A stretch of 64,000 nt of DNA from the NCBI GenBank assembly GCA_004369045.1, contig ML213518.1, positions 192,286-256,285 of the forward strand, given 5' to 3'. Source of the stretch: Heliocybe sulcata. Lineage: Eukaryota; Basidiomycota; Agaricomycetes; Gloeophyllales; Gloeophyllaceae. Below the pieces are notes generated by a model. It saw only the letters and a list, made by a program, of their open reading frames with translations. It ran no database searches and was not told the DNA's origin. Of this stretch, positions 40,931 through 57,915 are shown piece by piece. A program made the position numbers and the translations under genes. The first letter of the stretch is position 1, and each line of letters opens with the position of its first letter.

Positions 40931-43900
40931 TCACTGTGACTGATTGCGTATCTCTTCGAAGCGCTTTACAACAGTACGGATGTTCGGGCGGAGAGCAGGG
41001 TCACGGGCCCAGCAGGTTTCCATGAAACTCCACACGTCGTTGGGGATCTTGAGTCCTCCTTGTGGTCTCGGTGGGCTTCTGCCCAAGTATACTTCCGACA
41101 AAATGTGGTCATTCAATGTTGTCCCCGTGAACGGTCGCTCGCCAGAGTAGACCTGAAGTATCGCATGCCCTAATCATCAATAGTCCATGCACCCGTACTC
41201 CATACATACCTCCAAGCAGACACGAGCAAATGAGTAGACATCAGCTAGGGCTGCGATGTCAACGCCGGACAGAACAGTTTCGTAATCGGTGAAAAGTATT
41301 TCAGGTGCCGTGTACCGGGCACTACGAGACCACTCCGGCCAGAGCCCGTGTGCACAATGGCACCTACCAAAACCCCCGATCCTTGCGTGCCCGCTGTCAT
41401 CGATCAATATGTTCGACTGCCCATGTTCGTTATGGTAGTGAAAAGCAATAGCCGGCATGCCACGTACCGGCTTTAGATTTCCATGCGCAATACCCAGCCA
41501 GTGGAGATAGGCAAGCCCTCGTGCAACTGGATACAACCCAGTCAACATGCAGTTACGTACAAGGTCAGTAGAGTGTATTCGCTAAGTTATATAACCAGGA
41601 TCGCTCCAAGCCAATCAGCGGATAGAAATGGTCGAAGATTCCTTTCCTGGGCGTTCCTTAATACTGGTTATATAACCTAGCAAATACACTCTAGTCTGAG
41701 CATATCGCTTACCAGCCTACTGACAACCGCGCTCGAGCGGTTCGTGTCAAGATAATCGTTGATGGTGCCGTTGGCCATCCACGGCGACAGAAATACTCCG
41801 ATTACAGTGGAAGTTGCTTTATCCTCAACAAGGAAGGGAATGATATTTGCATGATCTGTTTGAGACCATAAGTGCACTGCATGTGCTGCAATCTGGTTTA
41901 TGTAAAGAACAAGGTCAATGCGTGAGGTTATTTCCATTCAGTCCGAATACCTTCTTGTCCCGAGGGAGGCACTGTAGTTTCACGGCGACCTGCATCAGCT
42001 GGCCATCGTCGCAGCGCACGGTGCTCCGGTAAATAGGCCCGGTCTCGCCTTTCGTTGCATGGGCAGTAGGCAATTCATATTCGCAACGCCGTAGATCTAG
42101 AGTGCGAGAAGAGCTGTCCCTTCCTAAGTCCCCAGGTATACTGGAGAAAAATATATCAGGTGCGGGTGAGCCTGCGAGCCATCGAGCGAAGAACTATTCA
42201 TGCAATGAAATGATCAGTATCATCCATCGGATACAGCGTGTCCATGGTTATACTCACACTTTTAGGCAGGAATCTACGACGAGTTCTCAAGAGTTGGTGC
42301 AACGCACTGAAAGGCAGGTTGCAGCCACACTCGAACTCGGACGTAAACGTTTCCTGGTCAATCCTACGAAAATCTAGGGAGAGCAAGTCCATTATATCTT
42401 CCTCGAGATTAGACGATACTGATGGTAAGTCGAATACGGTGGAAAGCCAGCCGAAGACATGTCCAGTATTGGTAATGAATTTGTCTTTCGTCTGCTGATC
42501 CACCAGCCCTTGGTTCATCCCGTATTTGATCACCAGTTCCGATAGTTTTTCGTCGACATATCTCTGCATATCGCTAAGCTCACGCAAGGGGGCGCTGCAT
42601 GGTGATACAAAACACTTTGACGGCGCAATAGCGCATAGGCCCTCATAGATACCCTCGGTCGGCCTGGCGGTCAGCAGAACCCTGAAGCCCTGACGCCCGG
42701 CCGGTTTCCGGCGGGAGCAGAGCTGTTGAAGCAGCTCGAGTCCTCCGTGGCATCCGTCTAGTGCATCCAGTACTATGAGAACTGAATGCCTGAACTCACT
42801 GGGATTCAGGTGTCCCAGCGGTTCAGCAATCAGCTTCTCGAATTGGTTATACGGTCCAATGGGAATCTGTCCCTCGAGAGCACTTAGAAGCCGGGGGCGA
42901 AAGGCGGGAAATGTGCGAGCCAGCTCGCAGGCGATAGTGGGGAAGACATGTCGTAGGCTGTTTCGATGTGGGTCCTGCTTTGAAAAGAAGAAACACGCCA
43001 CGGGTACTTCCTCTGCTGCAAGTAGGCTTGCTACAGTGTGGCAGACGGTCGTTTTCCCCGTCCACGCCGTATCGCACATATAACCGATCACGGGATTATT
43101 GAGATCCTCGCTTTTGGCGAATGTCGTGATCTCGTCGATCAAGGCTCTGCGAGTGCCTATGAAACAGCCACGTTCCTGGGACCATCCGTTGTCTACGATA
43201 ACGCGTTCACGAAGTCTCGAGAAACCTGTCGTGACCGTGTCAAATGTCCAATCAGGGTAAGATGTAACGATTAAAATACCTTCTGTCATAGCGTGCAAGT
43301 TGGCTCGCGGTTTGTCGCCAGATTCGGCGCTGACTTCATTCAAATCCCGTGGCGATGCAGCGCGGTTCTCCTCGCATGCACGCCTGAGGAAGAAACGCGA
43401 CAATGCGGCAGTAATGACAGGGCTATGACCGGCATCCAGCGCCAAAGCAAACATGGGATCGGCCGAGGATTCCATGTAGCGAGAGAAAGAAGGATGCATC
43501 ACTTCACCATTGTGAGTCAGAACCGAGCGCAGCGACTGGATAATCATGTCAACTTCCTCTTGATTTCTGTCTAGGATGACGGCTATCGCTTTGAGTCCTA
43601 TCTGATAGCGCCTTCCATAGATGATGAATGCGAGGACCTCTATGAAGATGCATTGCAGACTGGGTTCTTCCAAGCTTTCGAAGGCAGAACTGAGGATAAA
43701 CCTATACATATTACGGAGGCCCTTCTCCGGATCAAGGTCATTACTGCCGCTCCCAGCCAATTCAGCCAGGAGGCGCAGGTTCTTGTCAAGGTAGAAGGTC
43801 TTGGATCTCAGCAGGAACTCGCACGCGGTCGAAGCCCAGATGAAAAGACAGCCAGCATTAAGGGCGATCTGCATCCTGGTGTAGGAATCTGGCCAAGGTT

Positions 43901-45632
43901 GCTCCTTCCCATGTTGGCACGCTATTTCCAGGAACTTCCTGTCAAAATAGGTCTGAATGTCCGAGGAATCGCGCAAAATCGAGGCCTTCCCTAAGAGCGA
44001 CCGGGAGATTTCAGGGTACCGAGCTAGACCAACATCGAGGCCACTGACTGGCCTTGTTGTTATCACGAATCGAAGATGCCCTCGCAACGTGGCCTCCGCA
44101 TCCTGCAGTTTTTTCAATAGCTCCGGTCCCTTGTCACACTCATCGAGTGCATCGAGTAGTACCAGTGACAGCCGCTTGGCAGGCATGGAAATCGTCAGCG
44201 GCTTCAGAAGAAGCTCCTCCAACTGATTCTCCGGATGAGGGATGCCCTTCTCAAGGCATTTGCTGAGGGCTATCCGGTAGGCAGGAAGTAAGTTCGCTAG
44301 CTGACGAGCAAGGGTCGTAAAGACGTTCTCAAGGGAGCTGCGTTTTGGATCATCACGCGAGAAGAAAAAGCATGCTCCAAGTAGTTCTTCTTCCGACAGC
44401 CTGTTAGCGAGTGTATGCGAGACGGTGGTCTTGCCCACGCCAGCCATATCGCACAAGTAGCCGATTGGAGGAAGATCGCGGTCGGTACTGGTGGCGAACT
44501 CAAGGAGATTGTTGACCAGAACTTCGCGGGTGCCATCGAGACATGTTCGCTCCCTGGACCAGTTGGCCTCGGGGACGACATGAACAGCATCCAGCTTAGC
44601 AAGGCCTGACAGAACCGCATGGTGAGGTCAGACTACAAAGAAAGTCTATGACGCGGCATACGTTGTTCGGTAACTACGAGATTGATGTTCCTCTTCATGT
44701 CCGCCACGAGGCTCATCTCGTTGAAGACACCCAGCCTCAGTGATGCGTTATGCGATGAAGAGAGGCTGAACATATCCTTACCAGGAGTAGGCTCGTCACA
44801 TGGTCAAGCATGTCGTCCATTGCCATCCGAAGAGTCTTGGTCGATGCATGTCGCGCGGCACGGTCGAGCACATTGCGCTCCTGCTCTAGCTCTACGAGCC
44901 TTTGTAGGTCCCTAAATGCCGGCTTCGCACTTAACTGACACATGACGAGCTAAGCGCTGACATAACAGACTGGCGCAAGTCGAGGTTGTCCTCATTATAT
45001 ATGCTTTGGAATTCCGCGTCGTACTTGTGTAGAAGGTGCAACCAGTCACGTGTTTTCGCTTTCAATCGTTCCAGCTCGTCCGCGTTGTCTCGGACATCCT
45101 GGCATCGCGGGTCGATATCTGTGAGAAGCCACTAGCTGGCGAGACGCACCTGGACTATCTCGATGCCCTTCCCCAGGAGGCCTCCTATAGTTTTGAGGTA
45201 AGGAAAGTGCTCCAGACATTCCGCCACGTCCATCAGCACCGAGACTCCCAGCCCTACAGATGATAGTAGGTTGTTCACGGCAGAGGATTCCTCCTTTGGC
45301 GCTAGACTGCACACCGAAGGACTGCCGATTCGGGTATGGGAAGATAAATCGGCGTTGTTCTGCGCATCCTTCATGCAGAAGACGTTGATCAGATAATGTT
45401 TGCGAGGCAGCATAGTAGAGCACCTCACCTTTTCCGAGCTCGGCGTTGGACCTGCAGCGTCGATAGTGGATGAGCGACCAGGAGCGGGAGAGCGCCGCCG
45501 TAAAAATGCGGATTTGAGCCAGTTCTTGACCACAGATGACGGCTCAGGTGCAGGACACGCTGGACGCGACGAAGAAGGCGAAGCCTTGCCCTTGCCATTC
45601 GACGCTCTGGCTCTGGACTTGAATCGATGCAT
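40931..45632 (-). CDS. NACHT-NACHT-pseudokinase STAND protein (NLR-like)
   Basis: One gene in my reading, 1,322 residues in 11 exons with all phases consistent: 45632-45429, 45359-45150, 45098-44967, 44922-44782, 44692-44662, 44605-42258, 42193-41951, 41892-41721, 41526-41468, 41416-41210, 41152-40931. Exons 4-5 are the least sure. An N-terminal helical region (to ~residue 240) is followed by NACHT 1 (P-loop MAGVGKTT near 292, Walker B LLDALDEC), NACHT 2 (P-loop TAWTGKTT near 750, Walker B VLDALDGC lacking the acidic residue), then from ~1,022 a TKL-type kinase fold. The kinase part keeps the beta-3 Lys (VAVKL), APE, and CWARDPALRP, but has HGN for HRD and GFG for DFG. STAND proteins act as signal-gated oligomerising switches, often in self/non-self recognition. 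No ligand-sensing repeats are present. A MITE lies in the intron at 41,527-41,720. Confidence 0.78.
41571..41691. mobile_element. Small Tc1/mariner-like MITE in an intron
   Basis: A 121-base element has ~31-base terminal inverted repeats (GAGTGTATTCGCTAAGTTAT... and its complement), is flanked by TA dinucleotides (41,569-41,570 and 41,692-41,693), and has no coding capacity. It lies in the NACHT-pseudokinase gene; removing it with one TA leaves a 71-base intron, normal for this genome. Confidence 0.75.
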
Positions 45633-49311: not shown

Positions 49312-51676
49312 ATGGCCATCGCATCCACCTCGGACGTCTTCATTCTCTCCCTCGGTGTTATTCTCGCTGCACTCTATCTATTTAAGGACCAGCTTTTTGC
49401 CCCTGCTAAACCAAAGTCTGTATCTGCACCTGTAGCCAACAAATCCTTCAATGGCTCAGGTAACCCTCGCGACTTTATCGCGAAGATGAAGGATGGGGTA
49501 AGTGCTCATCGGTGCTCAATTTTGACATGGCCTCATCTTGAACCCCTGTACAGAAAAAACGTCTGGTCATCTTCTACGGCTCGCAAACCGGTACTGCTGA
49601 AGAATACGCTATCCGTATTGCCAAGGAGGCCAAGACCAAGTTCGGCCTGACGTCCCTCGTGTGCGATCCCGAAGAGTACGACTTTGACAACCTCGACCAG
49701 GTGCCCGAGGACTGCGCTGTCTTTTTCGTCATGGCCACCTACGGCGAGGGTGAACCCACCGATAACTCTGTCACCCTCATGGAGAACCTCAAGGACTCGT
49801 CTTTCGAGTTCAGCAATGGCGAGCACAAGCTCGAGGGCCTCAAGTACGTTATCTTCGGTCTCGGCAACAGGACGTATGAGCACTTCAACATGATCGCGCG
49901 CGTTGTGGACAAGGAGCTCACGGATATGGGTGCCGTCCGGATCGGCGAGCGGGGTGAGGGCGATGACGACCGGAGCATGGAGGAGGACTACCTCGAGTGG
50001 AAGGACAAGATGTGGGACGAGTTTGCTCGTGTGATGGGTGTCGAGGAAGGTCAGGGCGGTGACACCCCTGACTTTGCTGTCCAAGAGCTCGAATCGCATC
50101 CCCCTGAGAAGGTCTACCTTGGTAAGTCTTCGCTACCTCACGATTACGCGATACTTACCCTGCCCAGGTGAACTCTCCGCCCGCGCACTCACCAAGACGA
50201 AAGGTATTCACGACGCCAAGAACCCGTACCCAGCCCCGATCACGACCGCCAAGGAACTCTTCACCGTCGACGCCGACCGCAACTGCGTGCACCTCGAGCT
50301 CAACATCGAGGGCTCGGGCATCACCTACCAGCATGGCGACCACGTCGGCGTCTGGCCATCCAACCCCGACCTTGAAGTCGACCGCCTCCTCTGCGCACTG
50401 GGTCTCTACCACAGGAAGGATACGATCATCAACATCGAGTCGCTTGACCCCGCGCTCGCCAAGGTCCCCTTCCCCGTCCCCACGACGTACGCTACGGTCC
50501 TCCGCCACTATATCGATATCAGCGCTCTCGTTGGTCGGCAGATGCTCGGTGCTCTGTCCAAATTCGCGCCCACACCTGAATCTAGTGAGATTCTGAAGAC
50601 GTACAACACGAACAAGGAGCTGTACGCCTCGGTTGTCTCCGATGGGTGCTTGAAGCTCGGCGAAGTTCTGCAACTTGCCGCGGGTAACGACATCCACGCT
50701 GTCCCGACGCCGGAGAACACCACTGCCTGGCCTGTCCCTTTTGACATCATCGTCTCGTCCGTCCCGCGTCTGCAACCTCGGTACTACTCGATCTCGTCCT
50801 CCCCCAAGCTGCACCCGAACCATATCCACGTGACGGCCGTCGTGCTGAAGTACGAGTCTGTGCACAATGAGAAGGTCAAGCAGCGCTGGGTGTACGGTGT
50901 CGGGTCCAACTTCCTGCTCAACCTCAAGTATGCGACGGATGGCAACATGCCTGACGCACCGCTGATTGGGGAACCGGGTAAGGGCGAGCCTGCGGTTGTG
51001 TCGCAGCCCAAGTATGCGATTGAGGGCCCGAGGAATGCGTACAAGGAGGAAACTTCTTACAAGGTCCCGATTCACGTTAGACGGTCTACTTTCCGGTTGC
51101 CTACGAACCCGAAGACACCTGTTATTATGATCGGTCCTGGCACTGTACGTGATTCATTCCAAGGCTCTTGTGGTGTATGAGCTGACGGTGTTTTTGCAGG
51201 GTGTTGCCCCTTTCCGCGGTTTTGTCCAAGAGCGTGTCGCCCTCGCCCGGCGCACGATCGAGAAGAATGGAGCCAGCGCGCTGGCCGACTGGGGCAGGCT
51301 CTCGTTGTTCTACGGCTGCCGCAAGTCGACGGAGGACTTTTTGTACAAGGACGAGTGGCCTCAGTACGCGGAGGAGCTGCAGGGCAAGTTTGTGATGCAC
51401 ACCGCGCTCTCGCGCGAGGTGTATAAGCCCGACGGGAGCAAGATCTACGTCCAGGACTTGATCTGGGAGGACCGCGAGCACATTGCGGACGCGATTTTGA
51501 ACGGGAAGGGGTACGTGTATGTGTGTGGTGATGCGAAGAGCATGAGTAAGGCGGTGGAGGAGTGTTTGGCGAAGATTTTGGGCGAGGCGAAGGGGGGGAG
51601 TGCGGAGGTGGAGGGTGCGGCGGAGTTGAAGCTGCTGAAGGAGAGGAGCCGGCTGATGTTGGATGTGTGGAGTTAG
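49312..51676 (+). CDS. NADPH-cytochrome P450 reductase
   Basis: This ER-anchored diflavin enzyme passes electrons from NADPH via FAD and FMN to P450s, squalene monooxygenase and others. Four exons (49312-49497, 49554-50121, 50168-51144, 51200-51676) give 735 residues. An N-terminal anchor (VFILSLGVILAALYLF) is followed by the FMN domain (YGSQTGTAEEYA, ATYGEGEPTDN, GLGNRTYEHFN), the FAD domain (RYYSISSSP), the NADPH domain (GPGTGVAPFRGF, split by intron 3; YGCR; YVCGDAKSM) and the terminal Trp stacking motif DVWS. All key cofactor motifs are intact, so it should be active. It is well conserved and GC-rich in the third codon position like a highly expressed gene. Confidence 0.96.

Positions 51677-53998: not shown

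Positions 53999-57915
<3,917 letters not shown>

What the first reader, a model, noticed from the sequence alone, without database searches (positions are those of the whole stretch)
40931..45632. Two NACHT modules fused to a C-terminal pseudokinase in one STAND protein
An intron at 42,194-42,257 (GTGAGT...TAG, phase 0) removes the only stop between the second NACHT and the kinase fold, and all ten introns keep phase over 1,322 residues. Fungal NLR-like proteins usually have one NACHT or NB-ARC and C-terminal repeats; here a second NACHT and a kinase-like domain take the repeat position. By analogy with integrated decoys in plant NLRs, the kinase fold may be bait or a relay platform. The analogy is inference.
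Basis: partly seen in the sequence, partly recalled or inferred. Interest (0 to 1): 0.85.

Follow-up and report, generated by a model that had tools for sequence, protein, structure and literature searches.

The report
Fungal double-NACHT receptor with dead kinase
A fungus, probably mushroom-type, appears to carry one immune-receptor-like gene in which a doubled molecular switch is joined to a kinase that has lost its catalytic residues, where such receptors usually carry repeats; the parts are known, the combination looks unusual, and no transcript has yet been checked.

Summary
Two NACHT (Pfam NPHP3_N) modules lie in one uninterrupted 809-codon reading frame. A 64-nt phase-0 intron (42,257-42,194) removes the TGA that separates them from a kinase fold; an equally good bridge was found at 0 of 3,235 simulated stops. 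The kinase is a pseudokinase: HRD Asp is Asn, DFG Asp is Gly, whereas own-genome kinase loci keep them (19 of 20 and 17 of 17 scored, of 25). New points: NACHT1 has nucleotide-binding plus winged-helix parts; NACHT2 groups with it (41% identical), stops before the winged helix and has degenerate Walker motifs, yet stayed open where neutral decay would give about nine stops. A MITE sits in a kinase intron. The N-terminal intron chain is not unique and its helical domain matched no family. Of six other strong NACHT loci, four show WD40-like sequence by eye; no kinase was found beside any within the flanks held. C-terminal kinases in fungal NLRs, read as integrated decoys, are published for Sordariales (PMC12258605), so the decoy idea is not new. 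New variant of a known kind: a tandem-NACHT NLR with a tyrosine-kinase-like pseudokinase as likely sensor or latch. No RNA or orthologue could be examined.

The parts
40931..45632 (-). gene model, 12 exons and 11 introns, 1,307 aa (1,325-1,348 aa if one or both optional introns are retained)
   Evidence: no RNA evidence
44662..45359 (-). N-terminal region after a low-complexity start; residues about 89-250 are mostly predicted helical; no database family found
   Evidence: no Pfam family above its cut-off, no PDB match; simple propensity, 68% helix; introns 3 and 4 are non-consensus
43280..44605 (-). NACHT1 exon: P-loop GYLCDMAGVGKTT, Walker B LLDALDEC, winged-helix tail ending in HPSFSRYME
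   Evidence: profile positions 2-343 of 370
43226..43279 (-). optional intron between the NACHTs, 54 nt, in frame and without stop if retained
42258..43225 (-). NACHT2 exon: P-loop GYMCDTAWTGKTT, Walker B LDALDGC (second acidic residue lost), no winged helix
   Evidence: profile positions 6-233 of 370
42194..42257 (-). phase-0 intron that removes the TGA between NACHT2 and the kinase
40931..42193 (-). pseudokinase exons: VAVK Lys kept, HRD Asp to Asn (HGNLKPSN), DFG Asp to Gly (GGFG), APE kept
41527..41720 (-). intron 9, preferred borders; alternative 41,712-41,582
41569..41693 (.). MITE-like element in intron 9: 33-nt inverted arms, 91% complementary, 59 nt between them
   Evidence: six other places in the genome, 72-81% identical, one of them partial

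Best explanation
It is one gene for a fungal NLR-like STAND protein: helical N-terminal domain, NACHT1 with winged helix, a truncated and degenerate NACHT2, and a C-terminal TKL-type pseudokinase in place of repeats. Most likely mechanism: at rest the NACHT2-pseudokinase half folds back on NACHT1 and holds it closed. The pseudokinase does not phosphorylate; it is the sensor surface. Binding or modification of it (by a foreign effector, a kinase client, or an upstream kinase) releases NACHT1, which exchanges nucleotide and oligomerises, clustering the N-terminal helical domains to trigger cell death or another non-self response. Shown here by sequence: the two NACHTs in one frame, the bridging intron, the loss of both catalytic Asp residues, the missing winged helix of NACHT2, and reading-frame constraint on NACHT2. 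Inferred: single transcript, autoinhibition, sensing, oligomerisation, output.
For: Double NACHT in one 809-codon frame. Bridging intron beyond chance; in the kinase frame the first ATG after the preceding stop lies directly before the VAVK motif, inside the fold, so a stand-alone kinase would need another first exon. NACHT1 and NACHT2 group together, support 100/99, in a tree of 8 NACHTs from this genome and are 41% identical, against 25-32% for NACHT1's six other matches and 23-30% for NACHT2's. NACHT1 spans nucleotide-binding plus winged-helix profile, NACHT2 only the former. Zero stops in NACHT2; 0 of 300 neutral simulations to 41% identity had none (mean 9.2, minimum 2), and 0 of 300 to 60% identity (mean 6.2). 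HRD Asp kept in 19 of 20 scored own-genome kinase loci (5 of 25 not scored), DFG Asp in 17 of 17 (8 of 25 not aligned); some loci overlap; here both are lost. Four of six other strong NACHT loci show WD40-like sequence in that position (by eye). Precedent for C-terminal kinases in fungal NLRs: PMC12258605.
Against: No transcript evidence. Two N-terminal introns break consensus and many alternative chains exist. The N-terminal domain has no detectable match to an effector family: no Pfam family above its cut-off, no PDB match, and a profile comparison with five N-termini of other NACHT genes here scored 4.9, below the ten best of 40 shuffles (12.95-16.59). No orthologue could be examined: no other fungal genome is held; a viral and a prokaryote scan with the NACHT frame found none. 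No ligand or guarded kinase is identified.
Confidence: 0.45

Rival explanations
1. MLKL-like latch. The N-terminal helical domain is a four-helix-bundle executioner and the pseudokinase is its regulatory latch, as in MLKL, with the NACHT pair inserted as oligomerisation engine. An upstream kinase phosphorylates the pseudokinase to release it; no foreign effector is needed.
For: The pseudokinase C-lobe's best PDB sequence match is 6lba (E 1e-13), then RIPK1 (1.4e-13); RIPK4 follows. 6lba is an MLKL structure (PMC10881975 passage), and the aligned chain also reads GFG at the DFG site. Two paralogues that keep both Asp residues match mostly tyrosine kinases, with 6lba and the RIPKs not in their best 60. 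MLKL-like N-termini are common in basidiomycete NLRs (PMC9815663 passages), and some fungal HELL domains are fused to kinase or pseudokinase domains (PMC12881547 passages).
Against: No MLKL, HeLo or Goodbye match of the N-terminus. With the longer kinase queries an EGFR chain ranks first and 6lba second, and no chain named as animal MLKL is among the best 60. A third paralogue with a degenerate catalytic loop also ranks 6lba fourth, so this similarity may only reflect degeneration.
Confidence: 0.22
2. Two neighbouring genes: a double-NACHT gene ending at 42,198 and a separate pseudokinase gene.
For: A stop codon does end the NACHT frame; the kinase belongs to a family with many other loci here, most of them not near a NACHT match.
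Against: No intergenic space; the first in-frame ATG lies inside the kinase fold; consensus phase-0 intron.
Confidence: 0.1
3. A decaying pseudogene: MITE in an intron, non-consensus introns, dead kinase motifs and degenerate NACHT2 are signs of loss.
For: Non-consensus introns 3 and 4, MITE, lost motifs.
Against: No frame break from 44,605 to 40,931 apart from introns; neutral decay would have put about 9 stops into NACHT2. Recent loss is not excluded.
Confidence: 0.13
4. Integrated decoy in the strict sense: the pseudokinase copies a specific host kinase that a mycovirus or microbial effector attacks.
For: Published proposal for C-terminal CHK-2-like kinases in Sordariales NLRs (PMC12258605).
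Against: No close host kinase found in this genome: best-scoring match 35% (exon by exon, best candidates only).
Confidence: 0.1

Closest known systems
Sordariales T-NACHT NLRs with C-terminal PKinase (PMC12258605)
   Same: NACHT NLR with a kinase domain at the C-terminus; proposed sensor or integrated decoy
   Different: those are ascomycete, CHK-2-like and otherwise of canonical tripartite architecture; here the kinase is TKL-type with both catalytic Asp residues lost, no repeats were seen, and the NACHT is doubled
Fungal NACHT-WD40 NLRs (including C17 and C7 loci of this genome)
   Same: NPHP3_N/NACHT core and winged helix with an H-x-S-F motif; helical N-terminus by eye
   Different: WD40 repeats replaced by a second NACHT and a pseudokinase
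MLKL (animal, plant) and fungal HELL-kinase proteins
   Same: C-terminal pseudokinase of RIPK/MLKL flavour, GFG for DFG as in the 6lba chain, helical N-terminal region
   Different: two NACHT modules in between; the four-helix bundle is not shown
Plant NLRs with integrated kinase domains
   Same: kinase fold fused to a nucleotide-binding switch
   Different: NACHT not NB-ARC, no LRR; function untested; plant detail is from PMC12258605 and recall
Agaricomycete-expanded TKL/FslK kinases (PMC3937382, PMC2838846)
   Same: kinase fold family, by PF07714 and own-genome matches; assignment to FslK itself not tested
   Different: FslK members are predicted to be enzymatically active (PMC3937382 passages); the word NACHT does not occur in either main text

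Membership tests
STAND/NLR with NACHT | NACHT nucleotide-binding domain | tested here: met
   two NPHP3_N stretches, E 1.4e-41; PF05729 above its cut-off
STAND/NLR with NACHT | winged-helix part after the nucleotide-binding domain | tested here: met
   NACHT1 yes, NACHT2 no
STAND/NLR with NACHT | C-terminal repeats | tested here: not met
   kinase fold (PF07714) and no repeat family in the C-terminal part; the gene ends at 40,931
STAND/NLR with NACHT | N-terminal effector domain | tested here: inconclusive
   helical by propensity, no family match
STAND/NLR with NACHT | ligand-dependent oligomerisation | not testable with these tools
   needs protein work
HeLo/HELL/BaMLKL four-helix bundle | sequence or fold match | tested here: inconclusive
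MLKL | four-helix bundle joined by a brace to the pseudokinase (recalled) | tested here: not met
   two NACHT modules lie between
TKL protein kinases | PK_Tyr_Ser-Thr fold | tested here: met
   E 2.1e-24 or 3.6e-22 by intron model
TKL protein kinases | catalytic Asp and DFG Asp | tested here: not met
   Asn and Gly; hence pseudokinase
Integrated-decoy NLR | integrated domain closely related to a host target | tested here: not met
   best-scoring own-genome kinase match 35% over 139 residues; weaker short matches up to 53% over 30 residues
Integrated-decoy NLR | binding by a pathogen effector | not testable with these tools
   experiment needed

The most novel reading that the evidence does not exclude
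A single-chain hybrid of an NLR and an MLKL-type necroptosis protein: a helical membrane-active N-terminus, a working NACHT switch, a degenerate NACHT copy that has become a fixed intramolecular partner, and a pseudokinase latch. Sensor, switch and executioner would be one polypeptide, the NACHT-NACHT interface being supplied within the chain.
Probability: 0.15. Interest if true: 0.78.

Novelty: new variant of a known kind. Interest (0 to 1): 0.52.

Why it matters
Fungal NLRs sense mostly unknown ligands; a pseudokinase in the sensor position gives one concrete, testable sensor. The internal NACHT duplication, with one copy lacking the winged helix, offers a natural test of what a second NACHT does in STAND regulation. 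If the N-terminus is a four-helix bundle, the gene would tie NLR and MLKL logic together in one chain.

Tried and rejected
Structure prediction of the 809-aa NACHT frame from a single sequence gave mean pLDDT 37.1 and was not used; no fold search was run. The spliced N-terminus and kinase were not sent to the folding tool because its rule wants proteins read letter for letter from DNA.

N-terminal homology: Pfam at E up to 10 (only sub-threshold matches to unrelated families), PDB at E up to 10 (none), and hhalign against five own-genome N-termini, two of them typed without one exon (score 4.9; the ten best of 40 shuffles 12.95-16.59); all negative. No paralogue of it was found in this genome at E up to 0.1.

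C15 locus (NACHT at C15:372,587-373,060 and a kinase at C15:366,942-367,274, same strand, 5.3 kb apart): looked like a second fusion, but the 2.5 kb stretch fetched between them (C15:368,500-371,000) holds, at 80 codons or more, only frames of 83-89 codons, unrelated by eye; taken as separate genes, a judgement.

NACHT plus kinase in the 69 loci held (most with about 1.5 kb flanks): only loci of this same place hit both. Loci whose kinase lies further off would be missed.

The kinase at window 54,428-55,515 was considered and rejected as a relative: it lies with C1-type cysteine regions and looks like protein kinase C (by eye).

Alternative intron 9 (41,712-41,582) gives a higher PF07714 score (86.6 against 79.3 bits) but would use the MITE's own end as acceptor and code for what follows it; 41,720-41,527 is preferred on length and because the kinase then continues directly. 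This choice is a judgement, and the Pfam score is against it.

Paper searches on NACHT, kinase, pseudokinase, HeLo/MLKL and tandem NACHT in fungi (one search was for 6LBA): none of the listings or passages seen describes this architecture; the library is open-licence only, and most listed papers were not opened.

Reading state of papers: PMC12258605 passages plus sections 14 and 20; PMC12881547 passages plus section 18; PMC9815663, PMC4986451, PMC3937382, PMC10197012, PMC2838846, PMC9950082, PMC10881975 passages only.
Full report
What was checked. The gene runs on the minus strand from ATG 45,632 to the stop at 40,931. Two NACHT modules lie in one open frame of 809 codons, 44,627-42,198, so the double NACHT does not rest on any intron. 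The frame ends at TGA 42,200-42,198. An intron 42,257-42,194 (GTGAGT, branch-like CTGAT starting 24 nt before the end, TAG, phase 0) removes that stop and enters the kinase frame. In simulated sequence of the window's composition, 0 of 3,235 stops could be bridged by an intron of that consensus into 200 open bases; 4 of 3,108 with looser signals. The test was defined after seeing the intron. In the kinase frame the first ATG after the preceding stop lies directly before the VAVK motif, inside the fold.

Limits of the gene model. Models with 9-11 introns and 1,307-1,348 residues are all open. Introns 45,428-45,360 and 43,279-43,226 are optional. Intron 3 (donor GTCTGT) and intron 4 (acceptor GAG) are non-consensus, and a permissive search returned 30,667 open chains for the N-terminal part. 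Codon usage supports the assigned frame over the other two forward frames in 11 of 12 exons, by small margins; exon 1 is ambiguous, and in 3 of 12 exons a reverse frame scored higher (computed with the alternative intron 9).

The two NACHTs. NACHT1 (P-loop AGVGKTT, Walker B LLDALDEC) matches a profile of four own-genome NACHT paralogues over positions 2-343 of 370, winged helix and HPSF motif included; NACHT2 (AWTGKTT, LDALDGC) matches only positions 6-233. They group together with 100/99 support in a tree of eight NACHTs, NACHT2 on a longer branch (1.54 against 0.54; the tree tool warns that the place of long rows is unsure). They are 41% identical, against 25-32% for NACHT1's six other matches in this genome and 23-30% for NACHT2's. 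So the second copy most likely arose by duplication inside this gene's lineage and lost or never had the winged helix. Random neutral evolution of NACHT2 DNA to 41% identity gave on average 9.2 stops, none stop-free in 300 runs; to 60% identity 6.2 stops, none stop-free in 300. The observed copy has none. It has been kept as protein.

The kinase. PF07714 matches at E 2.1e-24 or 3.6e-22, depending on intron 9. The VAVK lysine is kept, the catalytic Asp is Asn (HGNLKPSN), the DFG Asp is Gly. Of 25 own-genome kinase loci held (some overlapping), 20 could be scored at the catalytic loop: 19 have Asp, one Ser; 17 could be aligned at DFG: all 17 have Asp. The best-scoring own-genome match is 35% identical. 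PDB matches of the C-lobe are led by 6lba, closely followed by RIPK1, then an EGFR chain and RIPK4; with longer queries the EGFR chain is first and 6lba second. 6lba is an MLKL structure (PMC10881975 passage; that it is the plant protein is recalled). Two paralogues that keep both Asp residues gave an EGFR chain and mostly tyrosine kinases, with 6lba not among their best 60; a third, degenerate one ranks 6lba fourth, so the MLKL flavour is weak evidence.

The rest of the genome. The window lies in a 31.6 Mb, 51-contig genome. That the organism is an agaricomycete is inference, from the many tyrosine-kinase-like kinases and the NACHT-WD40 genes. Besides this gene, six strong and two weak NPHP3_N loci were found, and PF05729 rings at three further places; the tool calls such counts lower bounds. 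Three of the six strong loci show WD40 repeats, a fourth begins them before a withheld stretch, and two show none within the DNA held (by eye). No held locus elsewhere has NACHT and kinase together. No paralogue of the N-terminal domain was found.

The MITE. Intron 9 holds a 125-bp element with 33-nt inverted arms; besides this copy, six other places in the genome match it at 72-81%, one of them in part. It makes intron 9 long and its borders uncertain.

Literature. C-terminal protein kinase domains in NACHT NLRs, read as candidate integrated decoys, are published for nine Sordariales proteins (PMC12258605, sections 14 and 20). MLKL-like N-termini are a major class in basidiomycete NLRs (PMC9815663 passages). 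Some HELL domains are joined to kinase or pseudokinase domains (PMC12881547 passages). Four phrases for tandem NACHTs gave no paper. The exact combination was not seen, in an open-licence library only.

Reading. One gene for a STAND protein whose working switch is NACHT1, with NACHT2 and a pseudokinase as a C-terminal regulatory half in place of repeats. Sensor or bait is the likeliest role; an MLKL-like latch is the main rival. Both need cDNA first.

Noticed in passing
window 41569-41693: MITE family with 33-nt inverted arms, apparently flanked by TA (by eye); six further places in the genome at 72-81% identity, one of them (C9:533,772-533,900) about 2.2 kb from the best-scoring kinase relative.
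   Followed up: partly
window 54428-57876: Minus-strand gene that looks like protein kinase C (C1-type cysteine regions, C2-like region, AGC-like kinase), by eye; ordinary.
   Followed up: no
window 49542-51676: Plus-strand gene that looks like NADPH-cytochrome P450 reductase, by eye.
   Followed up: no
G000 C17:42,000-114,000 (L013, L011, L014, L015): Four related NACHT genes within about 72 kb, three with WD40 repeats visible, with similar helical N-termini by eye; looks like an NLR cluster.
   Followed up: partly
L042 (C15:365427-368663): A second degenerate tyrosine-kinase-like kinase (HGS for HGD) beside an LRR-like reading frame, about 5.3 kb from a NACHT match on the same strand.
   Followed up: partly
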